NCBI RefSeq assembly: GCF_016820515.1
Contig: NZ_JADHDV010000013.1
Location: 1-64,000, forward strand
From: Pseudoxanthomonas beigongshangi
GTDB taxonomy: Bacteria; Pseudomonadota; Gammaproteobacteria; Xanthomonadales; Xanthomonadaceae
Direction: 5' to 3'
DNA length: 64,000 nucleotides
Below are positions 603 through 31,867 of this stretch, one piece after another. Each line of letters begins with the position of its first letter. The stretch's first letter is position 1. The notes beneath the pieces were generated by a model. It did not search any database. It was given only the letters and a program-made list of their open reading frames with translations, and was not told where the DNA came from. Made by a program: the position numbers and the translations under genes.

Positions 603-605
603 CGC

Positions 606-1186: not shown

Positions 1187-1204
1187 TTTCGATGCAGGCG
1201 GCTG

Positions 1205-1226
1205 AAGGCGCGCGAGCGCCTTTTTT
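1205..1226 (+). terminator. rho-independent terminator behind the tRNA-Lys fragment
   Basis: Stem AAGGCGC (1205-1211), loop GCGA, stem GCGCCTT (1216-1222), then a T run to 1226. It is 18 bases past the tRNA CCA end, where a native tRNA terminator would be. The rest of 1187-1341 shows no gene. Confidence 0.7.
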
Positions 1227-1341
1227 CGTGGTCGCGGAACACTGGCAGGCGGGCAGGAAGGACCTTGGGGAACCCCATGAAGGGCTCCCCTCCCGTGCAG
1301 CGGCTCCACCTGCTGCATGCGGGCGGGCTGGACCGTTGCGG

Positions 1342-4218: not shown

Positions 4219-5118
4219 ATGAAGCACGTCGCCCCGTTGTCCGCCGCCGTTGCACTGGTCCTGGCGCTACCGGCCTGGGCGGCCAAGCCGCCGCCGCCGG
4301 TTTGCCTGGGACCGGCCCAGGTGTTCGCCCCGGGAGTCATCAGTACGCCTGGACTCAATGAAGGCCGACTGGCATTCACTCCGGATCGGCAGACGATCTA
4401 CTGGCACGTCAACGAGATCCCGGGCCCGCCCGGATCCGACGCACTGTTCACCATCATGACCGCCCAGCGCACCGCGACCGGCTGGTCGACCCCGGACGTG
4501 GCCTCGTTCTCCGGCCTTGGCCAGTTCGCCGATTCGGACCCGGTCGTCTCGCTGGATGGCCAGCGACTGGTGTTCTCGTCCAACCGGCCCGGGAACCTGG
4601 GCCCCTATCCACTCAACGACCTCTGGGTGGTCGAGCGCACCGGCTCGGGCTGGAGCGAACCGGTCAATCTGGGACCGAACGTCAACAGCCCCTACAACGA
4701 GCTGTATGCCAGCCTGGATCGCGCCGGCAACCTGTACTTCGCCAGCGATCGCGACCGCGGGCAGTGGGACATCTACCGGAGCCTGCGCCAGCCGGATGGC
4801 CGCTATGGCCCGGCGATGTCGATCGGCCCGGGCGTGGACCATTCCCACCTGTGGGAATTCAATCCGCAGATCTCGCCGGACGGCCGCAGCCTGTTGTATT
4901 CCACGGTGGGCCGGCAGGACGGGCTGGGCGATGTCGACATCTACCTCAGCCGTATCGAGCGCAACGGCCGGCTCGGCAATCCGGTCAACGTGGGAAGCTG
5001 CGTCAACAGCGCGGGAACCGAGTTCCATCCGACCATGCTGTGGGATTCCAACGAGCTGTACTTCGCGCGCGTCCATGAAACGATCGATTTGATGGTGGCG
5101 CCGATCGAGATGCCGTGA
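4219..5118 (+). CDS. secreted PD40/WD40-like beta-propeller protein
   Basis: The product is 299 residues and begins with a clear Sec signal peptide (MKHVAPLSAAVALVLALPAWA). The mature part contains repeated TolB/PD40-type blades: FTPDRQTIYWHVN, VSLDGQRLVFSSNRPG, ASLDRAGNLYFASDRD, ISPDGRSLLYSTVG and MLWDSNELYFARV. Each has the D-G/D-R...YF/VF-SS pattern. It is probably a periplasmic binding or scaffold protein; no enzyme motif is visible. ATG at 4219 gives the signal peptide and follows GAGGGAC. The frame is open far upstream, but that sequence is a shadow of the GST gene. A strong terminator follows at 5142. Confidence 0.8.
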   Translation: MKHVAPLSAAVALVLALPAWAAKPPPPVCLGPAQVFAPGVISTPGLNEGRLAFTPDRQTIYWHVNEIPGPPGSDALFTIMTAQRTATGWSTPDVASFSGLGQFADSDPVVSLDGQRLVFSSNRPGNLGPYPLNDLWVVERTGSGWSEPVNLGPNVNSPYNELYASLDRAGNLYFASDRDRGQWDIYRSLRQPDGRYGPAMSIGPGVDHSHLWEFNPQISPDGRSLLYSTVGRQDGLGDVDIYLSRIERNGRLGNPVNVGSCVNSAGTEFHPTMLWDSNELYFARVHETIDLMVAPIEMP

Positions 5119-5141
5119 GCGAGTTGTGGGCGGCGAACGAA

Positions 5142-5168
5142 AGAGGCGCCGGAAGGCGCCTCTTTTTC
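5142..5168 (+). terminator. strong rho-independent terminator, probably bidirectional
   Basis: Stem AGAGGCGCC (5142-5150), loop GGAA, stem GGCGCCTCT (5155-5163) and TTTTCTTT. A short A-rich stretch on the left side could let it also serve the convergent gene ending at 5192. Confidence 0.85.
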
Positions 5169-5191
5169 TTTAGGGGGCGATGGGGTGCGGA

Positions 5192-5665
5192 TCAGGGCCG
5201 CATCGGCGTACCGCCGAAGCCGCGCGGCGGCGGCGGTCCCACGTCGCCGGGCAGCCGGCGATAGCCATGGAAGCCCGGACCGTCGTACCGGCTCACGCCG
5301 ATGTTGAGGTTGAACGCGCGGGATTCGCCCTCGTCGTTGTTGTAGGACTTGCAAAGGTTGATGTTGGCGGCGTTCCAGTGGCTACTGCCATAGCCCTTGG
5401 TATAGCCGATGCCGGTGGCGACGCTGCCGGAGACATCGACCTTGCCGTCATCCTCGTCGACCGGCTTGCCGCAGGCATTGCGGGCCACTGGCGCCGGACG
5501 CAGTGCGCGGGCCGGGCGTCCGCTGGTGTCGCCGTAATAGGTGCCGGGCGGGTCGGCCGAATAGAGCGCGGGCCGGGGCAGGGTGAGATCAAGGGACTCC
5601 GCCGATTGGGCCAGGGCGCTTCCGGAAGCCAACAGACTCAGCAGCAGCGGGGCAATTGCCTTCAT
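5192..5665 (-). CDS. small exported protein of unknown function
   Basis: The 157-residue protein has a typical signal peptide (MKAIAPLLLSLLASGSALAQ). The mature part has two Cys (in ARNACGKP and INLCKSY) that could form a disulfide, a DEDDGKVDVSGSVATGIGY segment that looks like a beta strand, and a Pro/Gly-rich C-terminus (GPPPPRGFGG). The middle, with GIGYTKGYGSSHWNAANINL, resembles families of small periplasmic beta proteins, but I do not recognise one. ATG at 5665 is chosen because it starts the signal peptide; the upstream extension of the frame is not plausible protein. It is convergent with the propeller gene. Confidence 0.6.
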   Translation of the reverse strand: MKAIAPLLLSLLASGSALAQSAESLDLTLPRPALYSADPPGTYYGDTSGRPARALRPAPVARNACGKPVDEDDGKVDVSGSVATGIGYTKGYGSSHWNAANINLCKSYNNDEGESRAFNLNIGVSRYDGPGFHGYRRLPGDVGPPPPRGFGGTPMRP

Positions 5666-5918
5666 GGGGGCCTCGGTCGAATGCGGATCAGTACGCGATC
5701 CATGCGCCAGTTGCCAGACGCTAGCAGCCACTGCTTGAACCCAGGCTGGCTTCCGCATGAACTTTCCGGCTAGGACGAAGGTCACGGTGACTTGATGGCG
5801 TCGCCCTGCCTTCCCGCAGCGGGAATCATGGCCATGCCGGACCGCTCCAGCGGATTCCCGTCGTGTCCGCCGGGCGGTTCCCCGCATAACAACCACAATA
5901 TAGCTGTGCTCTCTCATC

Positions 5919-5949
5919 GCGGTCGCAGGGGTCCTGCGGCCGCATTTTT
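5919..5949 (+). terminator. terminator-like hairpin on the plus strand without an upstream plus-strand gene
   Basis: Stem GCGGTCGCAGG (5919-5929), loop GGT, stem CCTGCGGCCGC (5933-5943) with one T-G wobble, then ATTTTTG. The gene-free interval 5666-5967 contains nothing else I can support. recQ runs on the other strand and would meet this hairpin without a T run. Confidence 0.5.
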
Positions 5950-5967
5950 GTTCGTGGAGGTCCGCCC

Positions 5968-7761
5968 TCAACCGGCCGCGCGGATCGCTTCCAGCACCTG
6001 TTCGCCGTAGCGGGCCAGCTTGGTCCCGCCGATGCCGCCGACCTGGGCCAGTTCGTCCAGGGTGCCGGGCCGGTGCTCGGCGATGTTGCGCAGGGTGCTG
6101 TCGTGGAAGATGACGTAGGCCGGGACGTTCTGTTGCTTCGCCAGCTGTGCGCGCAGGTCGCGCAAGGCGCCGAACAGGGGTTGGTCGGTAGGTGCGACGA
6201 CCACGCCGCTGCGCGGGGAGCGCTCGCGTTCCCGGGCCGGGGCATCCTTGCGCAGCAGCAGGCGGCGTTCGCCCCGCAGCACCGCCCGGCTGGCCTCGGT
6301 CAGGCGCAGGCTGCCATAGCCCTCCGCGTCGACCTCCAGCAGGCCGGAGGACACCAGTTGCCGGAACACGCTGCGCCAGGTGCCGGCGTCCAGATCCCGG
6401 CCGATGCCATAGGTGGTGAGCTGGTCATGCCCGCACTGGCGGATCTTCTCGCTCTCGCTGCCGCGCAGCACGTCGATGATGTGGTTCACGCCGAAGCGCT
6501 GGCCGCTGCGATAGACGCAACTCAACGCCTTCCGCGCGGCCTCGGTGGCATCCCAGGTGGCGGCCGGATGCAGGCAGTTGTCGCAGTTGCCGCATTCCTG
6601 GGGATAGGTTTCGCCGAAGCTGGCCAGCAGCACCTGCCGGCGGCATTGCATGGATTCGCAGTAGCCCAGCAGCTGATCCAGCTTGCGCCGCTCCAGCCGC
6701 TTGCGTTCCTCGCCGGCCTCGGACTGCTCGATCATCTGCTTCAGCAGCACCACGTCGCCCAGCCCGTAGCACAGCCAGGCGTCGGCGGCCTCGCCGTCGC
6801 GACCGGCGCGGCCGGTCTCCTGGTAGTAGCCCTCCAGCGACTTGGGCAGGTCCACATGCGCCACGAAGCGCACGTCCGGCTTGTCGATGCCCATGCCGAA
6901 GGCAATCGTCGCGACCATGACGATGCCTTCCTCGCGCAGGAAACGGCGTTGGTGGTGCGCGCGCATCTCGGCGTCCAGGCCGGCGTGGTAGGGCAGGGCA
7001 TTGAATCCCTGCTCCAGCAGGTAATCGGCGAACTGCTCCACCCGCTTGCGCGACAGGCAATAGACGATGCCGGCCTCGCCCTTGTGGGCCTGTAGGAAAT
7101 CGCGCAGCTGGCGCTTGGCGTTGTCCTTCTGGGTGACCGTGTAGCGGATATTGGGGCGGTCGAAGGAACTGACGAAGCGCTGCGCCTCGGTCAGGCCCAG
7201 GCGCTCGGCGATCTCGCGCTGGGTGGGCGGGTCGGCGGTGGCGGTCAGGGCGATCCGCGGCACGTCGGGCCAGCGCTCATGGAGGATCGTCAGTTCCAGG
7301 TACTCGCGGCGGAAATCGTGGCCCCAGGCCGAGACGCAGTGCGCCTCGTCGATGGCGAACAGCGCGATCCGGCTGCGATCCAGCAGGGACAGGAAGCGAG
7401 GCGTCAGCAGCCGTTCCGGGGCCACGTACAGCAGGTCCAGTTCGCCCTTCAGCAGGGCGCGTTCGACGTCCGCCGCGGTGGCGGCGTCCAGCGTCGAGTT
7501 GAGGAAGGCGGCGCGCACGCCGAGCTGGCGCAGTGCTTCCACCTGGTCCTGCATCAGCGCGATCAGCGGGGACACCACGATGCCCACGCCTTCGCGCAGG
7601 AGCGAGGGAATCTGGTAGCACAGCGACTTGCCGCCGCCGGTCGGCATCAGGACCAGGGCATCCTGGCCGGAGACGAGCTGTTCGACGATGGCCTGCTGGT
7701 GGCCGCGGAAACGGGAGTAGCCGAAGACCCGCAGCAGCAGGTCCGTGGGACGTTCTGACAT
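5968..7761 (-). CDS. recQ: ATP-dependent DNA helicase RecQ
   Basis: RecQ unwinds recombination and replication intermediates 3' to 5' and works with RecF-pathway proteins and topoisomerase III. The 597 residues are close to the E. coli length. Domains in order: a helicase core with Walker A LMPTGGGKSLCYQIP near residue 50 and DEAH box AIDEAHCVSAWG; helicase C-terminal motifs including ATIAFGMGIDKPDVRFV and QETGRAGRDG; a zinc-binding region with Cys in CRRQVL and CGNCDNC; a winged helix; and a C-terminal HRDC domain. Start ATG at 7761 gives MSERPTDLLLRVFGY, the normal N-terminus; the longer frame is not conserved-looking. It is followed only by a 302-base gene-free stretch. Confidence 0.96.
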   Translation of the reverse strand: MSERPTDLLLRVFGYSRFRGHQQAIVEQLVSGQDALVLMPTGGGKSLCYQIPSLLREGVGIVVSPLIALMQDQVEALRQLGVRAAFLNSTLDAATAADVERALLKGELDLLYVAPERLLTPRFLSLLDRSRIALFAIDEAHCVSAWGHDFRREYLELTILHERWPDVPRIALTATADPPTQREIAERLGLTEAQRFVSSFDRPNIRYTVTQKDNAKRQLRDFLQAHKGEAGIVYCLSRKRVEQFADYLLEQGFNALPYHAGLDAEMRAHHQRRFLREEGIVMVATIAFGMGIDKPDVRFVAHVDLPKSLEGYYQETGRAGRDGEAADAWLCYGLGDVVLLKQMIEQSEAGEERKRLERRKLDQLLGYCESMQCRRQVLLASFGETYPQECGNCDNCLHPAATWDATEAARKALSCVYRSGQRFGVNHIIDVLRGSESEKIRQCGHDQLTTYGIGRDLDAGTWRSVFRQLVSSGLLEVDAEGYGSLRLTEASRAVLRGERRLLLRKDAPARERERSPRSGVVVAPTDQPLFGALRDLRAQLAKQQNVPAYVIFHDSTLRNIAEHRPGTLDELAQVGGIGGTKLARYGEQVLEAIRAAG

Positions 7762-21633: not shown

Positions 21634-22235
21634 AGATGAAGTCGTTTCCGCGCACCGCCATCCTTGCCATTGCCACGGTATCGCTGGCCGCCTGCGTCAC
21701 CACGCCGCCCGAGCCCGAGGCGCCCGCCGTCGCGCTGCGCACGCCCGCGCAGATGCTGGGTGCGGTCTACAAGGCCGCGCAGGGCGGCGACGAGCGCGAA
21801 CTGAACGTGCAACCGCTGCGCGATCCGGAGGTCGAGGATCTGCGCGATACCGCCGGCAAGGCACTGGCCGCGGGCGATGCCGCCGCCGCCGCCGCCGCGC
21901 TGGACAAGGCGCTGGGCATCGTCGCCGACGACCCGGCGGTGTTGCAGGAGCGCGCCGAGGTCGCGCTGGCGCAGGGCGAATTCGATCGCGCCGAGCAGTT
22001 CGCCGCGCGCGCCACCGCGCTCGGTTCGGCGGTCGGCCCGCTGTGCCGCCGGCACTGGGAAACCGTCCGCCAGGTCCGCGAACGCCGTCGCGAGCAGGTG
22101 GCCGCGCCGCTGAAGCGTCCCAACCAGGCGCAACTGGACGAACAGGCGGCGAAGCTCGCGGCGCTGGATCGCGCCATCGGCGAGGCCGGCCAGCAATTCG
22201 ATGCCTGCACGGTGCCCGGCATCAATAGAATGTAA
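21630..22235 (+). CDS. predicted lipoprotein with helical repeats
   Basis: The product is 201 residues. It starts with a lipoprotein signal (MKMKSFPRTAILAIATVSLAAC, lipobox LAAC, Cys22), so it should be lipidated and anchored to the envelope. The mature part has a Pro-rich linker (TTPPEPEAPA). TPR-like Ala-rich helices follow (AGKALAAGDAAAAAAALDKALGIVADDPAVL and the next block), and it ends with a Cys. It overlaps the mrcB stop by four bases (ATGA), so the two are translationally coupled. That suggests a role with PBP1B, possibly as an activator, but sequence similarity to LpoB is not evident to me. Confidence 0.7.
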   Translation: MKMKSFPRTAILAIATVSLAACVTTPPEPEAPAVALRTPAQMLGAVYKAAQGGDERELNVQPLRDPEVEDLRDTAGKALAAGDAAAAAAALDKALGIVADDPAVLQERAEVALAQGEFDRAEQFAARATALGSAVGPLCRRHWETVRQVRERRREQVAAPLKRPNQAQLDEQAAKLAALDRAIGEAGQQFDACTVPGINRM

Positions 22236-22237
22236 GG

Positions 22238-24235
22238 ATGTCCCAGCTTGCCCAAGCCAGTTGCGAAGCCCTCAGCGAGGGCGGCGCCATGGCCAGCCGT
22301 CTCGATGCTTTCGTTCCCCGCGAGGCGCAATTGCGCCTCACCCGGGCCATTGCCGATGCCTTCGATCAGCGCGATGTGCTGATCGCCGAGGCCGGCACCG
22401 GCACCGGCAAGACCTTCGCCTATCTGGTGCCGGCGCTGCTGTCCGGGCTGAAGACGATCGTGTCCACCGGCACCCGCGCACTGCAGGACCAGCTCTATCA
22501 CCGCGATTTGCCGCGCGTGCGCGACGCGCTGGGCATCGGGTTGAAGAGCGCGCTGCTGAAGGGCCGCGCCAACTACCTGTGCCGCTACCGGCTGGAACAG
22601 GCCAAGGGCGAGCCGCGCTTCACCTCGCGCGAACAGGTCGATCAGTTCCAACGCATCGTCGCCTGGGGCGGACGCACCCACTTCGGCGACATGGCCGAAC
22701 TGGCGACGCTGCCCGACGACTCGCCGCTGCTGCCGATGGTCACCTCCACGGTGGACAACTGCCTGGGATCGGATTGCCCGTTCTGGGAGGACTGCTTCGT
22801 CGTGCAGGCGCGCCAGCGCGCGCAGGCGGCCGATCTGGTGGTGGTCAACCATCACCTGCTGCTGGCGGACCTGGCACTCAAGCAGGAAGGCTTCGGCGAA
22901 ATCCTGCCGGGCGCGCAGGCCTTCGTGATCGACGAGGCGCACCAGTTGCCCGAACTGGCGGCCAATTTCTTCGGCGAAGGTTTCGGCATGCGTCCGCTGC
23001 AGGAACTGGCGCGCGATTGCCTCAGCGAGTGCAAGGACGTGCCCGGCGCGCTGGCCGCGTTGCAGGCCCCGGTGCAGCGGCTGGAACTGGCGCTGCGCGA
23101 CTTGCGCCTGGCGATGGAGGGATTACCGGTACGCGGTACCCGCGAACGCGCGCTGGGCAAGATCGAGGTGAGCGAGGGTTTCGATCACGTGGTCGAAGCG
23201 CTGGCCGAGCTTTTCCAGTGCGTGGTCGGCATGGCCGAGGCGTCCATCGGTCTGGATGCCTGCGCCGCCCGCGCGCGCGAATTGTCCACGCGGCTTTCGC
23301 GCTGGCTGGGTGAAGGCGAGAGCGAGGCGATCCCCGGATTCGACGACGACGAACACGCGCATGACGCCGCCGGCGACGTGTTCTGGTACGAACTCACCCA
23401 GCGTGGTTTCCGCTGCCAACGCACGCCGCTGGACGTGTCCGCGCCGCTGCGCCAGCACCGCGAACAGTCGCGTGCGGCGTGGGTGTTCACCTCGGCGACG
23501 CTGGCGGTGGGCGGTCGCTTCGACCACTACGCCGAACGCCTGGGCCTGGAAGATCCGCCCACCTTGCTGCAACCCAGTCCGTTCGACTGGCCGCGGCAGG
23601 CGCTGTGCTACCTGCCCGGCAGCCTGCCGGATCCTGGCTCGCGCGATTTCGGCCGGGCGGTGATCGAAGCGGTCAAGCCGGTGCTGCATGCCTCGCAGGG
23701 GCGAGCGTTCCTGCTGTTCGCCTCGCATCGCGCGCTGCGCGAGGCGGCGGAGCTGCTGCGCGGCGGTCCGTGGCCGCTGTTCGTGCAGGGCGAAGCGCCG
23801 CGCGCGCTGCTGCTGCAACGGTTCCGCGAATCCGGCAACGGCGTGCTGCTGGGCGCGGCCAGCTTCCGCGAAGGCGTCGACGTGGCCGGCGATGCGCTGT
23901 CGGTGGTGGTGGTCGACAAGCTTCCGTTCGCGGCACCGGATGATCCGGTATTCGAAGCGCGCCTGGACGCGATCCGCCGGCATGGCGGCAATCCGTTCCG
24001 CGACGAACAGCTGCCGCAGGCGGTGATCGCGCTCAAGCAGGGCGTGGGCCGGCTGATCCGCAGCGAGACCGATCGCGGCGTGCTGGTGCTGTGCGATCCG
24101 CGCCTGCTGGGCAAGTCCTATGGCCGGGTGTTCCTGGATTCGCTGCCGCCGTTTGCGCGCACCCGACGGGTGGAAGACGTGCAGGCGTTCTTTGCGCCAG
24201 AATCGGCGGACCAGAGGGAAATGGATCTGTCATGA
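22238..24235 (+). CDS. yoaA: ATP-dependent helicase YoaA/DinG family (XPD-like, Fe-S)
   Basis: The 665-residue superfamily 2 helicase has Walker A EAGTGTGKTFAYLVPA near residue 55 and DEAH box FVIDEAHQLPE. Motif VI-like residues lie in LKQGVGRLIRSETDRGVL. Four cysteines between motifs I and II (YLCRYR, CLGSDCPFWEDC) match the Fe-S cluster ligands of XPD-family enzymes. It likely acts in DNA repair and replication-fork processing, as YoaA does with the HolC clamp-loader subunit. The first 17 residues are variable; ATG at 22289 is an alternative. The start is two bases after the lipoprotein stop, and the end overlaps tsaB by four bases. Confidence 0.9.
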   Translation: MSQLAQASCEALSEGGAMASRLDAFVPREAQLRLTRAIADAFDQRDVLIAEAGTGTGKTFAYLVPALLSGLKTIVSTGTRALQDQLYHRDLPRVRDALGIGLKSALLKGRANYLCRYRLEQAKGEPRFTSREQVDQFQRIVAWGGRTHFGDMAELATLPDDSPLLPMVTSTVDNCLGSDCPFWEDCFVVQARQRAQAADLVVVNHHLLLADLALKQEGFGEILPGAQAFVIDEAHQLPELAANFFGEGFGMRPLQELARDCLSECKDVPGALAALQAPVQRLELALRDLRLAMEGLPVRGTRERALGKIEVSEGFDHVVEALAELFQCVVGMAEASIGLDACAARARELSTRLSRWLGEGESEAIPGFDDDEHAHDAAGDVFWYELTQRGFRCQRTPLDVSAPLRQHREQSRAAWVFTSATLAVGGRFDHYAERLGLEDPPTLLQPSPFDWPRQALCYLPGSLPDPGSRDFGRAVIEAVKPVLHASQGRAFLLFASHRALREAAELLRGGPWPLFVQGEAPRALLLQRFRESGNGVLLGAASFREGVDVAGDALSVVVVDKLPFAAPDDPVFEARLDAIRRHGGNPFRDEQLPQAVIALKQGVGRLIRSETDRGVLVLCDPRLLGKSYGRVFLDSLPPFARTRRVEDVQAFFAPESADQREMDLS

Positions 24236-24957
24236 AGCTGCTTGCATTCGAGACCGCCACCGAAGCCTGCTCGGTGGCCCTGTATCTGGACGGCGAAGTG
24301 CGCGAGCGCTTCGAGATCGCGCCCCGCAGGCATGCCGAACTGGCGTTGCCCTGGGCCGATGCGCTACTGGCGGACGCCGGGTTGGCGCGGACCGAACTGG
24401 ATGCCATCGCGATCAGCCGGGGGCCTGGCGCGTTCACCGGCGTGCGCCTGGCGATCGCTTTGGCGCAGGGCATCGCGATGGCGCTGGACCGGCCGATCGT
24501 TCCGATCTCCACCCTCAAGGTGGTGGCGGCGTCGCTGGTGCTGCCGTATGCCACCGAGTCGGTCGGGGCGAAGCAACGCATTCTCGCCGCCATCGACGCG
24601 CGCATGGGCGAGGTCTATGCCGGTGCGTTCATGCGCGATGGCGCGGATCTGGTGGCGCTGTCGGAAGAGACCGTGTCCGCGCCGGACGCGGTCTTGCTGC
24701 CCGACGAGGACGGCCGCTGGCATGGCGCGGGCACCGGCTTCGCCGCGCTCGACGGCGTGCTGCAGGCACGTCTCCAGCCTTGGCTGGCCAGCGTGGATTC
24801 GCAGGTGCTGCCGCATGCGTCCGATCTGGCGCAGTTGGCATCGCTGGCTTACGCGCGTGGCGAAACCGTCGCGCCCGAGCGGGTGGAGCCCGCCTACCTG
24901 CGCGACAACGTCGCGCTGACGCTGGCCGAGCAGGAAGCCTTGCGGGCATCCAAGTAG
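24232..24957 (+). CDS. tsaB: tRNA threonylcarbamoyladenosine biosynthesis protein TsaB
   Basis: TsaB is the non-catalytic partner of TsaD and TsaE in making t6A37 on ANN-decoding tRNAs. The 241-residue product starts MKLLAFETATEACSVAL, an ASKHA-fold beginning, with HAELALPWADALLADAGL and SRGPGAFTGVRLAIALAQGIA as the characteristic family stretch, and a C-terminal PAYLRDNVALTLAEQ. ATG at 24232 overlaps the yoaA stop. A longer upstream open frame is a shadow of yoaA. The order yoaA-tsaB is also seen in other gammaproteobacteria. A long hairpin after the stop separates it from the convergent XRE gene. Confidence 0.95.
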   Translation: MKLLAFETATEACSVALYLDGEVRERFEIAPRRHAELALPWADALLADAGLARTELDAIAISRGPGAFTGVRLAIALAQGIAMALDRPIVPISTLKVVAASLVLPYATESVGAKQRILAAIDARMGEVYAGAFMRDGADLVALSEETVSAPDAVLLPDEDGRWHGAGTGFAALDGVLQARLQPWLASVDSQVLPHASDLAQLASLAYARGETVAPERVEPAYLRDNVALTLAEQEALRASK

Positions 24958-24975
24958 GCAGGCGCGGCCGTCCAC

Positions 24976-25009
24976 ACATCCCGCCCGCGCGATGACGCGG
25001 ACGGGATGT
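24976..25009. terminator. long hairpin between convergent tsaB and the XRE gene
   Basis: Arms ACATCCCGCCCGCG (24976-24989) and CGCGGACGGGATGT (24996-25009) pair over 14 positions with one mismatch and a six-base loop. No T run is seen. The position between two stop codons fits a bidirectional terminator. Confidence 0.55.
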
Positions 25010-25014
25010 CCGCT

Positions 25015-25383
25015 TCATGCGCGGCGCTTGCGCGCATGGACCTCGACGACGTCCAGGATCAGCGGACGCTGCTGCTTCGGCGCCTCGCGGAACAATTGCA
25101 GCAGGCAGCGTTCGTCACTGTCACGGGCGAATTCTTCCTGTGCGGCGACCGGGTGCGGAGATTCCTGATCGTCGTTCCCCGCGCCGCGCCCCGTCGCCAG
25201 CCATTCGAAGCTCACGCCGGTGAGTATCGCCAACCGGATCATGTGTTCGACCGTGGGCGTGACCTCGGAGTCGGACTCCCAGTTGGCGACCGCGCCGCGG
25301 GTAACGCCGATGCGCTCGGACAATTCCTGTTGCGACAGTCCGGCATTCTGGCGGGCGATACGGATGCGTGATGTGAGTTTCAT
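25015..25383 (-). CDS. XRE-family helix-turn-helix transcriptional regulator
   Basis: The 122-residue protein has an N-terminal Cro/CI-type HTH: IRIARQNAGLSQQELSERIGVTRGAVANWESDSEVTP, residues about 6-45, with GLSQQELSERIGV and the recognition helix TRGAVANWE. A mid part reading VEHMIRLAILTGVSFEWLATGRG, a common XRE extension, follows. The C-terminal half is acidic then basic (VVEVHARKRRA) and of unknown function. ATG at 25383 gives the normal HTH N-terminus. Upstream lies an inverted repeat (25439-25471) that could be its own operator, and beyond it the double-glycine peptide gene in the opposite direction. Confidence 0.85.
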   Translation of the reverse strand: MKLTSRIRIARQNAGLSQQELSERIGVTRGAVANWESDSEVTPTVEHMIRLAILTGVSFEWLATGRGAGNDDQESPHPVAAQEEFARDSDERCLLQLFREAPKQQRPLILDVVEVHARKRRA

Positions 25384-25438
25384 GTCGTCATTCCAGCAAT
25401 GAAGGAGCAACGAGCGTAGTGCGCGCATTCGCGTCGCT

Positions 25439-25471
25439 GCAACTAACATTGACTCTCACATTGCAAGTTGC
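25439..25471. promoter_or_regulatory. candidate operator upstream of the XRE gene
   Basis: GCAACT (25439-25444) and AGTTGC (25466-25471) are an inverted repeat enclosing two ACATTG direct repeats (25446-25451 and 25458-25463). It lies about 55-90 bases upstream of the XRE start. The remainder of the gene-free interval 25384-25736 is noticeably AT-richer than flanking genes and holds no other supported gene. Confidence 0.4.
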
Positions 25472-25736
25472 GTTTGCGAAAATCATTCGCCAACGGCTGT
25501 CCGCTGTTCCAGGTGAATGATCTTGCGAACGAATCGGGACGAATGCATCTGTTCGAGTATTGCGCATTGATGGATTCAAGACTCACACGGTGAACTAGTG
25601 CAAGGAATCGCCCAATGTTAATTGACCGGGCTGAAGGTCGCGTATGAGAAAGGGGGCGCAGGAAATGCCCGGTGGAAAGATATCTGGATTTTCCTGTCCC
25701 GGACGCAGGGGGTGCGTCGTCTTTAGGAATACGGAA

Positions 25737-25874
25737 ATGCGCGAACTTTCAGAGAGCGAAACGGCGGCGGTTGGAGGCGGATTCGCCCCGGTACTGGTGG
25801 CGATCGGAATTGCATTGCTTTCCGGATGCGCCACGACCGGCGGATTGCGGAAGGGGGAGGAACCCCCCGAATAA
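25737..25874 (+). CDS. 45-residue double-glycine leader peptide (bacteriocin/microcin-like precursor)
   Basis: The product begins MRELSESETAAVGG, which matches the double-glycine leader pattern (M-R-E-L-S..E...V.GG) removed by C39-peptidase ABC exporters in class II bacteriocins. The predicted core of about 31 residues has a hydrophobic stretch (FAPVLVAIGIALLSGC), one Cys and a Gly/charged tail ending KGEEPPE. ATG at 25737 follows TAGGAATAC, a plausible binding site; an in-frame ATG upstream gives a longer product without a leader. The LLSGC segment also looks like a lipobox, but the acidic N-terminus argues against a Sec signal. No exporter or peptidase is nearby. A hairpin and a membrane-protein gene follow. 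Confidence 0.55.
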   Translation: MRELSESETAAVGGGFAPVLVAIGIALLSGCATTGGLRKGEEPPE

Positions 25875-25901
25875 GTGGATCCGACTTCATGTCGATGACT
25901 G

Positions 25902-25930
25902 CCCCAGCCATGCATTCTGCATGGCTGGGG
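25902..25930 (+). terminator. perfect 13-bp hairpin between peptide and membrane-protein genes
   Basis: CCCCAGCCATGCA (25902-25914), loop TTC, TGCATGGCTGGGG (25918-25930). It lies 27 bases after the peptide stop and 21 bases before the next start. There is no T run, so it may attenuate readthrough or stabilise the short upstream mRNA rather than fully terminate. Confidence 0.6.
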
Positions 25931-25951
25931 ATACTTCCGTTCAGGTGATGA

Positions 25952-26674
25952 ATGAATGTGTATCGGATGTTTTACCGAGGAGCTGGTTTCACTGCGCTGA
26001 TCCTGGCCCTATGTCTGTTCGACGTTCTGCCGGGGTTACGGCTTCCAATGGTTGCTGGCTGCCTGATCGGACTGGGAATCTGTGCTGTCCTGGCGTTTGG
26101 ATTCCGCCGGGCATGGAAAAGAGGCCGCGTGACCATTCCCCTGCTGGCTGGTGCGGCCTTCATCGTCGGTGGAGCGGCATTCGACATCTACGCGACGTTG
26201 CACCACTCACCGGATCTGGAACACGAAGCGAATCCGCTGGCCAGGGCGCTCCTGGATGAAGGATTGGCGCCGGCAACGGTGTTGATGCTGGGAGGAATTG
26301 GCCAAACCTGCCTTGTTTTCACTTCGCTCATGATCTGGATGAACCTGGTAATCCGGTTCAAATGGTATGAAGGAAAGATCGGGACATCGGAGAGATCCGG
26401 GCTGGCCGGCAGGATGCTTCTGGCGAACAGGATGTTTGGCGCCCCGGACAACGGACTGGCGTCCTTGCTGGGGATGCGCACGGATCCCGAAGTCCTGATC
26501 TGCGGGGTCGGATTCCTGATGCTGCCCCTGTATGCCTATCGCTGGTATCTGGGGCTGGAATGGTTCGGACTCGTTCCCATTTCCAGAATCGTCGTGCCCG
26601 TGTCGCTGGTGGTGCTTGCGCTCGCGGTGCAATTCATCTGGGCCACACGCGTGTCGCGCGCCTCCCCGGGTTGA
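25952..26674 (+). CDS. multi-pass membrane protein of unknown function
   Basis: The product is 240 residues with about six hydrophobic segments: residues near 10-28, 32-50, 62-80, 105-125, 185-202 and 208-232. A conserved-looking loop DIYATLHHSPDLEHEANPL between the third and fourth segments has Asp, Thr, Glu and Asn. That pattern (D...T...E.NP) occurs in small families of uncharacterised bacterial membrane proteins. No transporter or enzyme signature is seen. It follows the double-glycine peptide in the same direction and shares its lower GC content, so an accessory or immunity role is possible but only inferred. Confidence 0.6.
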   Translation: MNVYRMFYRGAGFTALILALCLFDVLPGLRLPMVAGCLIGLGICAVLAFGFRRAWKRGRVTIPLLAGAAFIVGGAAFDIYATLHHSPDLEHEANPLARALLDEGLAPATVLMLGGIGQTCLVFTSLMIWMNLVIRFKWYEGKIGTSERSGLAGRMLLANRMFGAPDNGLASLLGMRTDPEVLICGVGFLMLPLYAYRWYLGLEWFGLVPISRIVVPVSLVVLALAVQFIWATRVSRASPG

Positions 26675-26761
26675 TCCATTGTTGGCTGGATGCAGCGGGT
26701 TGCCGCAGATCAGCGCTTCCGGACGCACGCTGAGGCGGCGGCGGGCATCGGCGGCTGGCGA

Positions 26762-27637
26762 CTACTCGTCCCGCACTTCACCGCCGGGCAGGAAATTCCA
26801 CGTGCGGGTGACGTGCAGGATGTCGATGTGCTCGTCGGTTTCCGGCAGCGGCGGGAAGGGTTCGGCGAGGCGGACGATGCGCAGCGCGGTGGAGTCGAGC
26901 AGCGGGATGCCGCTGGACTGGATGATGCGGGTCTGCTCGATCGAGCCGTCGCGACGTACCGCCACGCTGATCACCAGCTGTCCGGCCAGCCGCTTGCGGC
27001 GCGCCTCGTCCGGATAGTTGAGATTGCCCACGCGTTCGGCGCGATCGACCCAGGCGCGCAGGTAGTTGGCATAGGCGTACTCGCGGGTGCTGGCGGAGAC
27101 GAACTTGCGCTTGGGCCGCTTGGCGTACAGCTCCGAGCGCAGGTGGATTTCGGCGGCCAGCCGCGCCATCTCGGCGTCGTGCTGGATCTTGCGCTCGCCC
27201 CGCGGCAGGTCGGGGCGTTCGAACGGTGGCGTCGATTCGGCCGGCGGCACCCGCTGCGCGCTGTCGCGGGTGGTGATGACGCGCGCCTCCGGCGGCGGTG
27301 CGGGCGCCGGCGATTGCGCGCGCAACGGCTGCGGCGCCAGCCCGGTCTCCTGCTGCGGCACCCAGCCGGCCTGGCTGTCGCGCGGACGCCTGGCCTTGTC
27401 GTGGTCGCCGCCGCCCTGCTGATTGGCGGCGGCCAGGAAGTCGGCTTCCTTCGGGGTCAGCGGGGTCTGGGTCTGGCTGAGCACCACGTCCAGGGTGGGT
27501 ACCACCGGCGCCGCCTCGTCCAGGCTGAAGCCCACGCCGAGCACCAGCATGCCGTGCAGGATCAGCGACAGCGCCAGGGTCGCGCCCAGGCGTTCGTTCT
27601 CGCCGACGCGGGGCGGGGCAACGGCAACCGCGTTCAT
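26762..27637 (-). CDS. TonB-family energy-transducing protein
   Basis: The 291-residue protein has a short cytoplasmic N-terminus, one membrane helix (about residues 18-38, LGATLALSLILHGMLVLGVGF) and a Pro/Gln/Arg-rich periplasmic spacer. The C-terminal TonB domain has NYPDEARRKRLAGQLVISVAV, DGSIEQTRIIQSSG and LDSTALRIVRLAEPFPPLP. It probably links proton-motive force to an outer-membrane partner. It is one base from the gshB stop and next to the pil-chp cluster. In Pseudomonas aeruginosa the equivalent position holds tonB3, needed for twitching motility, so a pilus role is plausible here by synteny. Confidence 0.85.
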   Translation of the reverse strand: MNAVAVAPPRVGENERLGATLALSLILHGMLVLGVGFSLDEAAPVVPTLDVVLSQTQTPLTPKEADFLAAANQQGGGDHDKARRPRDSQAGWVPQQETGLAPQPLRAQSPAPAPPPEARVITTRDSAQRVPPAESTPPFERPDLPRGERKIQHDAEMARLAAEIHLRSELYAKRPKRKFVSASTREYAYANYLRAWVDRAERVGNLNYPDEARRKRLAGQLVISVAVRRDGSIEQTRIIQSSGIPLLDSTALRIVRLAEPFPPLPETDEHIDILHVTRTWNFLPGGEVRDE

Positions 27638-27638
27638 G

Positions 27639-28586
27639 TCAGCCGGCCAGCTTGCGCTCGATGACGTCGAACAACTGCCCGGCGATGTTCAGCCCGAACT
27701 GAGCATCGAGCTCGCGCACGCAGGTCGGGCTGGTGACGTTGACCTCGGTCAGGTAGTCGCCGATCACGTCCAGGCCGACGAACAGCATGCCGCGGCGCTT
27801 CATTTCAGGGCCGACCTGACCGGCGATCCAGCGATCGCGCTCGCTCAGCGGGCGGCCTTCGCCGCGGCCGCCGGCAGCGAGGTTGCCGCGGAATTCGTCG
27901 CCTTGCGGGATACGCGCCAGCGCGTAGTCCACCGGCTCGCCATCGACCAGCAGGACCCGCTTGTCGCCGTCCTTGATGCCGGGAATGAAGCGCTGGGCCA
28001 GGGCCAGGTGGCCGGGGCCGACCAGGGTTTCCAGGATCACGTTGGTGTTGGGATCACCGGCGCGGACCCGGAAGATCGAGCGCCCGCCCATCCCGTCCAG
28101 CGGCTTGAGCACGGCTTCGCCATGCTCGTGGACGAAGGCCTTGAGCGCGGCCGGGTCGCGACTGACCAGGGTGGGCGGGCAGCACTGCGGGAACAGCAGC
28201 GCGGCCAGCTTCTCGTTGAAATCGCGCAGGCCCTGAGGATCATTGACCAGCAGGGCACCGGCGGCCTGGGCCACCGACAGGATGTGGGTGTCGTACAGGT
28301 ACTCGCCGTCCACCGGGGGGTCCTTGCGCATCAGCACCACCTGGCCGGGGCCGAAGCGCTGGTCGACCGGTTCGCCGAGGGTGAACCAGCCGGCCTTGTC
28401 GTCCTTCACCGCCAGCGGGGCGGTGCGCGCCCAGGCCTCGCCGCCGCGCAGCGACAGCCCGCCCGGGACCACGTAGTGGAGCCGATGGCCGCGGCGCTGG
28501 GCTTCCAGCAGCATGGCGAAGGTGGTGTCCTTGGCAATCTTGATGGACCCGATGGGGTCCATGACGACGATGACATCGAACGGCAT
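27639..28586 (-). CDS. gshB: glutathione synthase
   Basis: The enzyme ligates gamma-glutamylcysteine and glycine using ATP, the second step of glutathione synthesis. The 315 residues match the E. coli enzyme (316). It begins MPFDVIVVMDPIGSIKIAKDTTFAML and has FNEKLAALLFP and the ATP-grasp stretch AVLKPLDGMGGRSIFRV. GDKRVLLVDGEPV and LTEVNVTSPTCVRELD, the metal-binding end of the fold, follow. ATG at 28586 is the conserved start; the frame upstream is unrelated. It is divergent from pilG and coupled to the TonB-like gene, an arrangement shared with pseudomonads. Confidence 0.96.
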   Translation of the reverse strand: MPFDVIVVMDPIGSIKIAKDTTFAMLLEAQRRGHRLHYVVPGGLSLRGGEAWARTAPLAVKDDKAGWFTLGEPVDQRFGPGQVVLMRKDPPVDGEYLYDTHILSVAQAAGALLVNDPQGLRDFNEKLAALLFPQCCPPTLVSRDPAALKAFVHEHGEAVLKPLDGMGGRSIFRVRAGDPNTNVILETLVGPGHLALAQRFIPGIKDGDKRVLLVDGEPVDYALARIPQGDEFRGNLAAGGRGEGRPLSERDRWIAGQVGPEMKRRGMLFVGLDVIGDYLTEVNVTSPTCVRELDAQFGLNIAGQLFDVIERKLAG

Positions 28587-28727
28587 GGCGGGGAGGTGGC
28601 GGACCGGTGCGGAAAGTGCCGCGATGGTAGCAGGCCGCGCCCGTCGGGCCCGTCGGGAAGCCTGCGAGGCCAAGTGAGACGGAGTTCGCATCGCCGTGTT
28701 CAGCTGGGGCCTTTCCCGAGGCCCAAC

Positions 28728-28758
28728 TTGACAGTCCGCCCCGGGGCTGGAATATAGG
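28728..28758 (+). promoter_or_regulatory. candidate sigma-70-type promoter for the pil-chp operon
   Basis: A perfect -35 box TTGACA (28728-28733) is followed after 19 bases by TATAGG (28753-28758), about 58 bases upstream of pilG. The spacer is longer than optimal, so activity may need an activator. It is the only good candidate in the 28587-28815 interval. Confidence 0.4.
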
Positions 28759-28815
28759 GGCATCGCAGCGACGCCGGTTGGTCAATGAAGCGTCGCGCGC
28801 ACGGGGATTCCAGTA

Positions 28816-29217
28816 ATGACGCAGAACGCTGACCGGGCCGGGGAACTCAATGGCCTCCGGGTCATGGTTATCGATGACTCGAAAACCATCCGCCGCACCG
28901 CGGAGACCCTATTAAAACGAGAAGGTTGCGAGGTGGTGACCGCGACGGACGGCTTCGAGGCCCTGGCCAAGATCGCCGACCAGCAGCCGCAGATCATCTT
29001 CGTCGACATCATGATGCCGCGGCTGGACGGTTATCAGACCTGTGCGCTCATCAAGAACAACCAGGTGTTCAAGAGCACCCCGGTGATCATGCTGTCCTCC
29101 AAGGACGGCCTGTTCGACAAGGCCCGCGGCCGGATCGTCGGATCCGAGCAGTACCTGACCAAGCCGTTCACGCGCGAGGAACTCCTCGGCGCGATCCGCG
29201 CGCACGTCAGCACTTGA
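28816..29217 (+). CDS. pilG: PilG, single-domain response regulator of twitching motility
   Basis: PilG is a CheY-like receiver phosphorylated by the ChpA kinase; in pseudomonads it promotes pilus extension and cAMP signalling. The 133-residue protein begins with a short leader, then GLRVMVIDDSKTIRRTAE with the acidic pair, phosphoacceptor Asp64 in FVDIMMPRLDGYQT, the Ser/Thr switch region VIMLSSKDGLFDKAR and the conserved Lys in YLTKPFTREELL. It is the first gene of the pil-chp cluster, 43 bases before pilI. The second receiver, pilH, usually next in pseudomonads, is not present here. Confidence 0.95.
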   Translation: MTQNADRAGELNGLRVMVIDDSKTIRRTAETLLKREGCEVVTATDGFEALAKIADQQPQIIFVDIMMPRLDGYQTCALIKNNQVFKSTPVIMLSSKDGLFDKARGRIVGSEQYLTKPFTREELLGAIRAHVST

Positions 29218-29260
29218 GTGCCGTGACGCCGACTGCCACACCGCGCACTGGGAGCGGGAC

Positions 29261-29794
29261 ATGAGTCGTACGCCGTTCGATATCCTCGCAGAATACGAGC
29301 GCCGCAGCCTGGCGCATGCGGTCGTGCTGCCTGCCGTCGAGCAGGCGCCCGACCAATGGCGCGGGGTCGGCTACCGGGTCGGCCAGCGCCGGCTGGTGTC
29401 CAACTTCGCCGAAGTGGTGGAAATCGTGCCGCTGCCGCCGATGACGCAGGTGCCGGGCGCGCAACCCTGGCTGCTGGGCATCGGCAACCTGCGCGGCAAC
29501 CTGTTTCCCGTGGTCGATCTCAAGCAGTTCCTGGAAGGCGAGCGCACCGTGCTGCACGAGGGGCAGCGAGTGCTGGTGATGCGCCAGCCGGGCGGGGACG
29601 TCGCCCTGACCATCGACGAGCTGTACGGACAACGCAGTTTCAATGAAACCCAGCGGACCGAGCCGGGGAGCCTGGCCGAGGGGCGTTACGGATATTTCGT
29701 CGACCGTGCGTATCACGGCGACGAGCACGATTGGGGGGTGTTCGCGCTGTCGTTGCTGGCGCGCACACCGGAGTTCCGACAAGCCGCGCTCTGA
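29261..29794 (+). CDS. pilI: PilI, CheW-type coupling protein
   Basis: PilI links the PilJ chemoreceptor to the ChpA kinase. The 177-residue product is a single CheW domain: GYRVGQRRLVSNFAEVVEIVPLP at the start, GIGNLRGNLFPVVDLKQFL as the beta-strand core, and VLVMRQPGGDVALTIDELYG later. ATG at 29261 follows GGGAC. It lies between pilG and pilJ, as in other Pil-Chp systems. No membrane segment is present; it should be cytoplasmic and bound to receptor arrays. Confidence 0.93.
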   Translation: MSRTPFDILAEYERRSLAHAVVLPAVEQAPDQWRGVGYRVGQRRLVSNFAEVVEIVPLPPMTQVPGAQPWLLGIGNLRGNLFPVVDLKQFLEGERTVLHEGQRVLVMRQPGGDVALTIDELYGQRSFNETQRTEPGSLAEGRYGYFVDRAYHGDEHDWGVFALSLLARTPEFRQAAL

Positions 29795-29830
29795 CGCGGA
29801 CGACAACTAGAAACAGCCAGGGGTTTGGAA

Positions 29831-31867
29831 ATGAGCACTGCGGCGGATTCCCCCAACACCAGCAAGCTGGGCGGCCTGGGCAGCACGTCCTGGCTGGTCC
29901 TGCTGGTGATTGCGGTATTGCTGTTCGGCGCCAACACGGGCGTCGCCACCTGGCAGGGCAGCCGGTTGTCCGGCGCCAGCACCGGCGCATCGGACATGCG
30001 CGTACTGTCGCAACAGCTGGCCAACTACGGCCGCGAGGCCGTGGCCGGCAACGCCGATGCGTTCAAGGCGTTCCGGACCACCAAGGAACGCATCGACACC
30101 ACGGTCACCGAACTGGAAGGCCGGTTCGGCAAGGAAGGCGCCATCGTCGGACCGCTGACCCAGCTGAAGACGACCTGGGCGCCGCTGGACAAGAGCGCCG
30201 ACCAGATCATCGCCAGCGAGGCCGCGGTGCTGGCCCTGTCCGGCAACGCCGATCGCTTCGCCGGCCAGGTGCCGCAGTTGCAGGCGCAGTTGAACGAGGT
30301 GGTGCGCGCGATGTCGGCCGGCGGGGCGCCGTCCTCGCAGATCTACAGCGCGCTGCAACAGGTCGTGCTGGCCGGCACGATGGCCCGTCGCGTGACCGAA
30401 ATCCGCGCCGGCGGCGCCGGCGCCTCGATGGCCGGCGACGCGCTCGGCCGCGACGCGGTGCTGTTCGGCCAGGTGCTGGAAGGCCTGCGCAACGGCAACG
30501 CGGACCTGGGCATCGCCGCAGTCCGCAACGCAGGCGCGTTGTCCGCGCTGGACCAGTCGCAGGCGCTGTGGAACAACATGAAGAAGGATCTGGACGCGAT
30601 CCTCGGCAGCTCGCGCAACCTGTTCGGCGCGCAGTCCTCGGCCGCGGCGCTGACCAACGGCGCCGGCAAGATGCTGGAGGACAGCACCCGGTTGTTCGAG
30701 GCGTTCACCGCGTTCGGTTCCGTGCGCGATACCCGCCTGTTCCCGAACTTCTGGATTTCGGTGGGTGCCGGCTTCCTGCTGCTGGTCTCGATCGGCGGCT
30801 TCCTTTTCAGCCTGTACCGCAACCGCCAGCGCGAGCAGGAAACGCGCTACCAGACCCAGGTCGAATTCAACAGCCGCAACCAGCAGGCGATCATGCGGTT
30901 GCTGGACGAAATCAGCTCGCTGGGTGAAGGCGATCTGACGGTCAAGGCCTCGGTGACCGAGGACATGACCGGCGCCATCGCGGACGCCATCAACTACGCG
31001 GTGGACGAACTGCGCAACCTGGTGACCACCATCAACGACACTTCGGTGCAGGTGGCCGCCTCGACCCAGGAAACCCAGGCCACCGCGCTGCAACTGGCCG
31101 AAGCGGCCGGCCACCAGGCCGACCAGATCACCAACGCCTCCGAGCGCATCAACGAAATCGCGGTCAGCATCGACCAGGTGTCGCGCAACTCCACCGAATC
31201 GGCGGACGTGGCGCAGCGCTCGGTGCAGATCGCGACCGAGGGTGCCGGCGTGGTCCGCGAGACCATCCGCGGCATGGACCAGATTCGCGACCAGATCCAG
31301 GAAACCTCCAAGCGCATCAAGCGCCTGGGCGAGTCCTCGCAGGAAATCGGATCGGTGGTGGAACTGATCAACGACATTTCCGAACAGACCAACATCCTGG
31401 CCTTGAACGCCGCGGTGCAGGCCGCTTCGGCGGGCGAGGCGGGCCGCGGTTTCGCGGTCGTGGCCGACGAAGTGCAACGGCTGGCCGAACGCACCTCCGG
31501 CGCGACCCGCCGCATCGAGTCGCTGGTGCAGGCGATTCAGGCCGACACCAACGAGGCGGTCAGTTCGATGGAACAGACCACCGCCGAAGTGGTGTCCGGC
31601 GCGCGCCTGGCCGAGGACGCGGGCACCGCGCTGGGCGAGATCGAGCGCGTGTCCAGCGATCTCAACGACCTCATCAAGAACATCTCCGGTGCGGCCCAGC
31701 AGCAGTCGGCCGCGGCCTCGGACATCACCGAGACGATGGGCGTGATCCGCCAGATCACCTCGCAGACTTCGCTCGGCGCCAAGCAGACCGCCGATTCGAT
31801 CGGCCACCTGGCGCAACTGGCGGCGGACCTGCGTCGTTCGGTCGCCGACTTCAAACTGCCGGGCTGA
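29831..31867 (+). CDS. pilJ: PilJ, type IV pilus methyl-accepting chemoreceptor
   Basis: The 678-residue receptor has an N-terminal membrane helix (about residues 18-38), a periplasmic PilJ-type sensory region to about residue 305 and a second membrane helix (about 308-330, FWISVGAGFLLLVSIGGFLF). A HAMP-like linker and a long coiled-coil signalling domain follow. The hairpin tip EQTNILALNAAVQAASAGEA and then GRGFAVVADEVQRLAERT are classic for methyl-accepting proteins. It senses pilus or surface cues and controls ChpA. ATG at 29831 follows the in-frame TTG at 29825. No pilK methyltransferase gene is nearby. Confidence 0.94.
   Translation: MSTAADSPNTSKLGGLGSTSWLVLLVIAVLLFGANTGVATWQGSRLSGASTGASDMRVLSQQLANYGREAVAGNADAFKAFRTTKERIDTTVTELEGRFGKEGAIVGPLTQLKTTWAPLDKSADQIIASEAAVLALSGNADRFAGQVPQLQAQLNEVVRAMSAGGAPSSQIYSALQQVVLAGTMARRVTEIRAGGAGASMAGDALGRDAVLFGQVLEGLRNGNADLGIAAVRNAGALSALDQSQALWNNMKKDLDAILGSSRNLFGAQSSAAALTNGAGKMLEDSTRLFEAFTAFGSVRDTRLFPNFWISVGAGFLLLVSIGGFLFSLYRNRQREQETRYQTQVEFNSRNQQAIMRLLDEISSLGEGDLTVKASVTEDMTGAIADAINYAVDELRNLVTTINDTSVQVAASTQETQATALQLAEAAGHQADQITNASERINEIAVSIDQVSRNSTESADVAQRSVQIATEGAGVVRETIRGMDQIRDQIQETSKRIKRLGESSQEIGSVVELINDISEQTNILALNAAVQAASAGEAGRGFAVVADEVQRLAERTSGATRRIESLVQAIQADTNEAVSSMEQTTAEVVSGARLAEDAGTALGEIERVSSDLNDLIKNISGAAQQQSAAASDITETMGVIRQITSQTSLGAKQTADSIGHLAQLAADLRRSVADFKLPG

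What the first reader, a model, noticed from the sequence alone, without database searches (positions are those of the whole stretch)
25737..26674. Possible double-glycine peptide module with a dedicated membrane protein
A 45-residue ORF with a MRELSESETAAVGG leader is followed by a perfect hairpin and a six-helix membrane protein of unknown family, in an AT-richer island next to an XRE regulator. Leader peptide, hairpin, membrane protein and regulator together look like a compact secreted-peptide and immunity (or sensing) unit. No exporter or modification enzyme is adjacent, so the exporter would have to be elsewhere.
Basis: partly seen in the sequence, partly recalled or inferred. Interest (0 to 1): 0.65.

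Follow-up and report, generated by a model that had tools for sequence, protein, structure and literature searches.

The report
Export-tagged peptide with membrane-protein partner
A tiny gene for a peptide that carries an export tag sits beside a gene for a membrane protein of an undescribed family; the same pair turns up in distantly related bacteria, once in front of the genes of an export machine for such peptides, so it looks like a small secreted-peptide unit with a protective or sensing partner that stands apart from its exporter.

Summary
The 45-residue ORF (25737-25874) has a double-glycine leader far above chance (22.7 bits; next best of 2005 ORF starts 5.6). A 13-bp hairpin (25902-25930) and a 240-residue membrane protein (MP) of no known family follow; an XRE gene diverges upstream, with two copies of a candidate operator between. 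In 38 Pseudoxanthomonas genomes XRE ortholog, peptide and MP occur together in 3 and in none of the other 35. In G178, another genus, XRE-peptide-hairpin-MP heads an operon with a second peptide, HlyD and a C39-peptidase ABC exporter; a peptide-only search led to the same peptide-MP pair in G885, another family. XRE homologs stand within 5 kb of 5 of 16 exporter-type C39 matches of the genus. The window's own assembly shows no C39 ABC exporter, but a contig ends near where the sister species has one. So the unit is real; secretion and immunity are inferred. Unexpected: the core reads like a lipoprotein signal ending in a lipobox cysteine (5 of 6 relatives by the broad pattern, 4 of 6 strict; 0 of 33 other double-glycine candidates).

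The parts
25015..25383 (-). XRE-family regulator gene (122 aa from the conserved ATG at 25383)
   Evidence: HTH_3 E 2.4e-15; in the genus, orthologs of 94% and 66% identity only in the two other genomes that also have peptide and MP
25440..25451 (-). candidate XRE operator, copy 1 (CAATGTTAGTTG)
   Evidence: with copy 2 the only two exact matches in 64 kb, one further place at two mismatches; motif chosen by eye from this region and that of RX3
25613..25624 (+). candidate XRE operator, copy 2 (CAATGTTAATTG)
   Evidence: as copy 1; both copies also exact in the XRE-peptide gap of z9 (L031) and RX3 (L105), RX3 by choice of the motif
25737..25874 (+). double-glycine leader peptide, 45 aa: leader MRELSESETAAVGG(G), core with hydrophobic stretch, LSGC, short polar tail
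   Evidence: leader matrix; family alignment A8 of six sequences
25902..25930 (+). hairpin between peptide and membrane-protein genes, 13 bp stem, 3-nt loop
   Evidence: gap folds with z -3.68; hairpins at the same place in RX3 (z -4.41) and G178 (z -2.82) and a stem in G885 (z -2.26 for the gap)
25952..26674 (+). membrane protein (MP), 240 aa, undescribed family; motifs D-x3-T-x2-HSP-x-L-x2-EAN and R-x-YL-x2-EW-x3-VP-x-S conserved in all six homologs
   Evidence: alignment A7; only weak Pfam and PHROG matches, none over a curated cut-off, none in NCBIfam, PADLOC or PDB sequences

Best explanation
A compact, XRE-controlled double-glycine peptide unit that stands apart from its exporter. The XRE protein binds paired CAATGTTARTTG sites in the divergent promoter region and controls the peptide gene (inferred). 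The transcript makes a 45-residue pre-peptide; the hairpin behind the peptide gene keeps the downstream MP at a lower level (inferred). A C39-peptidase ABC exporter with HlyD and an outer-membrane channel cuts behind the glycines and exports a core of about 30 residues (inferred): the exporter is encoded in the same gene row in genus g70, elsewhere in the genome in z9 and RX3, and was not found in the window's own assembly. The core, a hydrophobic segment with one conserved cysteine and a short charged tail, acts on the envelope of rival or sister cells, and MP sits in the inner membrane of the producer as dedicated partner, most likely immunity (inferred). Where no exporter is encoded, the unit would serve as protection against relatives that do export the peptide, or be silent. 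Shown: leader, gene order, conservation of the pair, association of the XRE family with exporters. Inferred: binding, export, toxicity, immunity.
For: Leader match far above chance, scored with other loci's leaders only. XRE ortholog, peptide and MP all-or-none in 3 of 38 genus genomes. G178: XRE - peptide - hairpin - MP - second peptide - HlyD - C39 ABC. G885, found with the peptide profile alone (E 7.2e-13), has an MP homolog directly behind it (28% identity to window MP, E 6.6e-20, in tblastn against that one stretch). XRE homologs lie within 5 kb of 5 of the 16 exporter-type C39 matches (E 1e-30 or better) of the genus; these are 5 of the 58 non-orthologous XRE hits. The order there is XRE (divergent) - HlyD - C39 ABC, with candidate double-glycine peptides in four of the five loci (in L096 HlyD is a fragment and no peptide was found). 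z9 and RX3 carry C39 exporters with MREL- or MRTL-type peptides next to them. Peptide and MP are under purifying selection.
Against: No C39 ABC exporter found in the window's own genome; its one C39 match is a 230-residue protein beside amyloid-type genes (my reading). G120 has XRE, MP, a second peptide and exporter but no copy of this peptide beside them; its matches to the peptide profile elsewhere (five counted) are partial in the rows listed (best E 4.4e-5, positions 1-26). G239 has the peptide without MP, XRE or C39 exporter in the stretch held. MP keeps polar invariant motifs at 26% identity, more like an enzyme or receptor than a fast-evolving immunity protein, and at 240 aa is longer than the 51-216 aa of verified microcin immunity proteins (PMC9746304, passages). 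The lipobox-like core fits no known class II peptide that I know of. In the gap beside XRE the operator is not seen at two mismatches or fewer in G178, G120, L139, L142, L070 or L094.
Confidence: 0.5

Rival explanations
1. Peptide signal and sensor: the exported core is a pheromone, and MP is its membrane receptor or a relay to the XRE regulator, so that the unit senses related cells rather than killing them.
For: Regulator, peptide and MP go together in the genus; MP has conserved polar motifs; the MP of G885 has a weak match to the membrane part of a signalling family (7TMR-DISM_7TM, E 0.0095, 16.3 bits against a cut-off of 29); a double-glycine peptide of Xanthomonas, RaxX, acts as a signal that rice perceives (PMC8872720, passages).
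Against: No signalling domain over a curated cut-off in any of six MP homologs, and that weak match is in one of six only; the XRE family also stands at exporter loci where no MP was found; XRE-type regulators usually read soluble ligands (recalled). G885 shows the pair with no XRE hit of weight in the stretch held, but the contig ends about 400 bases upstream of the peptide.
Confidence: 0.2
2. Lipopeptide maturation pair: the peptide is processed at its cysteine (lipidation at the lipobox, inside the producer or in a target cell) and MP is a dedicated membrane enzyme or chaperone for it.
For: Lipobox-like motif 15-16 residues behind the glycines in 5 of 6 relatives by the PROSITE-like pattern, 4 of 6 by the strict one, 0 of 33 other double-glycine candidates; C, the G before it and the A after it are invariant in all six; nine of the ten partial matches of the peptide profile in other class genomes cover the lipobox half only; invariant D, H, E, N, R, E residues in MP.
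Against: RX3 has TDGC, which breaks both patterns. Exporters of this kind move the core from cytoplasm to outside without meeting Lgt and LspA (recalled). The acidic N-terminus is unlike a Sec signal. MP shows no similarity to solved structures by sequence.
Confidence: 0.15
3. An ordinary small lipoprotein gene whose N-terminus resembles a double-glycine leader by chance, beside an unrelated membrane protein.
For: The second half of the peptide reads like a lipoprotein signal peptide; weak lipoprotein models for relatives (E 0.055 to 0.21, below cut-off).
Against: MREL, E8, V12 and the glycines 14-15 are invariant in six homologs down to 41% identity and match exporter-linked leaders; linkage to an exporter gene row in G178 and to MP in five genomes.
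Confidence: 0.07
4. A decaying remnant: in the window's own species the exporter is gone and the peptide no longer has a job, only MP being kept as resistance.
For: No C39 ABC exporter in the assembly; G120 shows MP without the peptide beside it; no second match of the peptide profile in G000 at E 0.05, while z9 and RX3 have one more each. A class II bacteriocin gene without its immunity and ABC genes has been reported in Xylella (PMC11885251, passages).
Against: The peptide ORF is intact, 98% identical to z9, with operators and hairpin kept, though the two species are too close for decay to show; a contig ends near the place where z9 has its exporter.
Confidence: 0.08

Closest known systems
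Class II microcin systems of Gram-negative bacteria (microcin V type; features from PMC9746304, passages read)
   Same: double-glycine leader, membrane partner next door, C39 PCAT and HlyD-type fusion protein (in relatives)
   Different: no exporter beside it in the window; core only about 30 residues with a lipobox-like cysteine; MP longer than verified immunity proteins; no activity shown
RaxX - RaxST - RaxA - RaxB of Xanthomonas (PMC8872720, passages read)
   Same: double-glycine peptide exported by a PCAT plus periplasmic adaptor, in a related plant bacterium
   Different: RaxX is sulfated and its sulfotransferase and exporter are encoded beside it; the passages read mention no MP or XRE partner
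NCBIfam TIGR03949, class IIb bacteriocin, lactobin A/cerein 7B family
   Same: matches over the leader and start of the core; two of six relatives pass the cut-off
   Different: the window peptide itself is below the cut-off (17.2 against 21.5 bits)
CvaC/Cvi microcins of Xylella fastidiosa (PMC11885251, passages read)
   Same: peptide with a double-glycine-type leader and an immunity gene beside it
   Different: 103-residue precursor, colicin V-like core; other immunity protein

Membership tests
Class II microcin / double-glycine bacteriocin system | precursor with a double-glycine leader | tested here: met
   leader matrix 22.7 bits, first of 2005 ORF starts
Class II microcin / double-glycine bacteriocin system | C39 PCAT exporter and membrane fusion protein in the genome | tested here: inconclusive
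   C39 ABC not found in the window's own assembly, a contig end lies near the place where z9 has it; present in z9 and RX3 and in the same gene row in G178 and G120
Class II microcin / double-glycine bacteriocin system | cognate inner-membrane immunity protein close to the peptide | tested here: inconclusive
   a conserved membrane protein is next door; its role is not known
Class II microcin / double-glycine bacteriocin system | antibacterial activity | not testable with these tools
   needs an assay
TIGR03949 class IIb bacteriocin, lactobin A/cerein 7B | score over the curated cut-off of 21.5 bits | tested here: not met
   window 17.2, z9 16.1, G239 13.5, G885 13.7; RX3 23.8 and G178 24.2 pass: 2 of 6. 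Yardstick: four exporter-linked peptides of the genus also fail (15.3, 13.3, 9.4, no match)
Bacterial lipoprotein | lipobox cysteine | tested here: met
   LSGC in the window peptide; 4 of 6 relatives strict, 5 of 6 broad pattern (patterns recalled)
Bacterial lipoprotein | Sec signal with a positively charged N-terminal region | tested here: not met
   the residues before the hydrophobic stretch, MRELSESETAAVGGG, hold one R and three E (sequence)
CPBP (Rce1-like) immunity proteins | match to PF02517 | tested here: not met
   no match listed for any of six MP homologs at E 10, HMMER's filters on
RaxX-type sulfated peptide | adjacent sulfotransferase and exporter genes, tyrosine in the core | tested here: not met
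   none among the ORFs of 22000-30500 read by eye; the peptide has no tyrosine

The most novel reading that the evidence does not exclude
A new family of secreted peptides that unites a double-glycine export leader with a lipoprotein-signal-like core: the exported core mimics a lipobox signal peptide and acts on (or is processed by) the lipoprotein-maturation machinery of the cell it reaches, and the conserved membrane protein, a new family with enzyme-like invariant residues, is its dedicated immunity or processing partner, the pair being spread across families of one bacterial class.
Probability: 0.15. Interest if true: 0.8.

Novelty: new variant of a known kind. Interest (0 to 1): 0.55.

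Why it matters
It gives a clear test case for orphan double-glycine peptides: a peptide with a recognisable export leader, a partner of an undescribed membrane-protein family, a regulator family tied to peptide exporters, and relatives with and without an adjacent exporter in which the same pair can be compared. If the lipobox-like core is what it looks like, it would be a peptide aimed at lipoprotein maturation, a step that is an antibiotic target (recalled).

Tried and rejected
Wrong frame: I first named the peptide as 25738-25872, one base off, so protein 2, alignment A2 and proteins 1 and 4 say nothing about it and are not used; protein 3 (the longer ORF) and and later use the right frame.

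Structure: two AlphaFold2 models of MP (3 rows pLDDT 46.0; 5 rows pLDDT 57.9); Foldseek of the second against the PDB gave 47 matches, none with E at or below 0.001; rejected as uninformative. A possible likeness of the D-x3-T...EANP stretch to DUF5658-type proteins is recalled from memory; no Pfam scan listed that family. Weak matches of MP: PHROG 23575 in two of six homologs (best E 0.011), DUF4131 in two of six (best E 0.026), 7TMR-DISM_7TM in one (E 0.0095), DUF326 and DUF3043 in one each.

Recent transfer of the module between the window's species and z9: rejected, the stretch around it is about as similar (98-99% from 25750 to 27500, but also 96-100% over 28500-31500).

Mobile carriage: no match of the window MP in plasmids, of the G885 MP in phages and plasmids, of the MP alignment in viral contigs; the peptide gave one unconvincing plasmid match (E 4).

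Literature: in the searches for a double-glycine leader together with a lipobox or a lipoprotein signal peptide (1 and 4 papers, listings only) and in five further searches (listings; one search showed 15 of 198) no title or abstract start described such a peptide or this module. This covers only the open-licence library searched, and I did not read those papers through.

Full report
What was checked. The window lies in a Pseudoxanthomonas-like genome: its nearest relative by MP, G036, has a contig of the same length as the named record of Pseudoxanthomonas sp. z9, and G012 one of the same length as a bin named Pseudoxanthomonas sp. RX3. A leader matrix from 19 leaders of peptides at other loci with a C39 ABC match ranks the peptide first of 2005 ORF starts in the window (22.7 bits, next 5.6); the 19 training leaders score 30.3-45.2 on themselves, the best of 50 shuffles 9.3. 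So the leader is clear but weaker than its training set; relatives score 36.2 (RX3), 31.5 (G178), 20.4 (G239) and 19.1 (z9); G885 was not scored.

Conservation in the genus. MP: 3 of the first 100 genomes, 38 of them of the genus, own one included. Peptide: 3 of 38. XRE orthologs (94% and 66% identity) in the same two other genomes, while other XRE homologs are at 48% or less over most of the query (a few short matches reach 49-57%). The scan of genome contigs found two loci, z9 and the RX3 bin. Against RX3, dN/dS is about 0.12 for the peptide and 0.13 for MP, with dS near saturation.

Beyond the genus. An MP profile (3 rows) found 5 of 395 family genomes: the three, plus G178 and G120 of one other genus; a 5-row profile found 3 of 397 order genomes, all already known, and 2 of the 3 genomes of that other genus. 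In the rows shown at most 7 and 6 of the first-look candidates per genome were scored, so distant relatives may have been missed. In G178 the gene order is XRE (divergent) - peptide MRELTNEEVEQVGGGLLPFVVVAALLLSGCAHTKPVRRGDKPADE - hairpin - MP - second MREL peptide ending in cysteine - HlyD protein - C39 ABC exporter (domains by Pfam). G120 has the same order without the first peptide. The peptide profile (4 rows) gave 149 of 395 family genomes at E 0.05, the rows listed being partial except five: the four known and G239 (E 1e-9), where the peptide stands alone between sdhB-like and lolC-like genes (my reading of the ORFs). With 5 rows, 12 of 369 class genomes matched at E 0.001; only the own genome and G885 over nearly the full length; nine of the other ten cover the lipobox half only and one the leader only. 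In G885, of a different family and 38% G+C in the stretch held, an MP homolog follows the peptide directly (28% identity, E 6.6e-20 in that stretch). As the search used the peptide alone, finding MP behind it is independent support for the pair. No C39 ABC or HlyD match of weight was found in the 9.2 kb held of G885; the rest of its genome was not searched for them.

Regulator and operator. Of 61 XRE matches in the genus at E 1e-10, 3 are the orthologs; of the other 58, 5 lie within 5 kb of one of the 16 exporter-type C39 matches with E 1e-30 or better (G022, G019, G024, G008, G013). Of these 16, 15 lie in open frames of 703-817 codons and one (G010) in a broken-up frame. By my arithmetic about 0.06 such neighbours would be expected by chance. 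The five loci read XRE - HlyD - C39 ABC, with candidate peptides in four. Eleven of the 16 have no XRE match within 5 kb. The 12-base site CAATGTTARTTG, chosen by eye from the window and RX3, occurs exactly twice in the 64 kb, both times between XRE and peptide, and likewise in z9; RX3 has both by choice of the motif. Of the five XRE-exporter loci, three have it beside XRE with one mismatch (L093, L095, L096), L092 with two, L094 with three; G178 and L139 have none there, G120, L142 and L070 only three-mismatch sites.

Hairpin. The gap between peptide and MP folds into a stable hairpin in the window (z -3.68), RX3 (z -4.41) and G178 (z -2.82), and a stem lies there in G885 (z -2.26 for the gap). 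Only the G885 stem is followed by a T-rich stretch; G178 has three T. Its role as a partial terminator or stabiliser is inference.

The exporter question. The Pfam C39 model finds in the own genome one match only, in a 230-residue protein beside amyloid-type genes (FapD-like by my reading). z9 has a like match and one in an ABC exporter; RX3 has a like match and two in ABC exporters. A C39 query from the z9 exporter finds nothing in the own genome at E 0.001. The longest match of the 19 kb around the z9 exporter to the own genome (1.8 kb, 93%) begins at base 165 of own contig C17 and lies about 2.6 kb beyond the exporter; the other seven matches are shorter and none covers the exporter beyond 71 bases. 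So an assembly gap cannot be excluded.

The core. In six family members the cysteine sits at position 30-32, 15-17 residues behind G15. The strict lipobox pattern fits 4 of 6 and the PROSITE-like one 5 of 6; RX3 with TDGC fits neither, G885 with LGGC only the second. Of the other double-glycine candidates printed were tested and the three left out there: 0 of 33 fit, near-duplicates of sister species included. The patterns are recalled. MP: invariant in all six homologs are, among others, D78, T82, H85, S86, P87, E92, A93, N94, R197, Y199, E203, W204, P209, S211. No solved structure matches by sequence.

Reading. The simplest account is a microcin-like or bacteriocin-like peptide with its membrane partner, a unit that heads an exporter gene row in one genus and has no exporter beside it in Pseudoxanthomonas. 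Whether MP protects, senses or processes is open. Defining features of class II microcin systems were taken from PMC9746304 (passages), RaxX from PMC8872720 (passages), Xylella microcins from PMC11885251 (passages).

Noticed in passing
G000 contig C32, locus L027 about 4500-7740: Amyloid-type gene group with a 230-residue C39-peptidase protein (FapD-like by my reading), the only C39 match of the own genome.
   Followed up: partly
L030 4739-5288: RX3 bin: two glycine-rich MREL-leader peptides side by side before a C39 ABC exporter and HlyD, a possible two-peptide bacteriocin.
   Followed up: no
L028 9977-10669: z9: an MREL peptide behind the C39 exporter is followed by a 144-residue membrane protein with a weak CPBP (PF02517, E 0.014, below cut-off) match.
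   Followed up: no
L068 6561-6749 and L069 6933-7148: Second peptide of the g70 gene row: leader with NGAG in place of GG, core ending in cysteine; it is there with or without the first peptide.
   Followed up: no
L138 7791-7922: G239 carries a lone member of the peptide family, GTG start, without XRE, MP or C39 exporter in the stretch held.
   Followed up: partly
window 1-1700: The other low-G+C place of the window (55.6% for the first 1288 bases), not examined.
   Followed up: no
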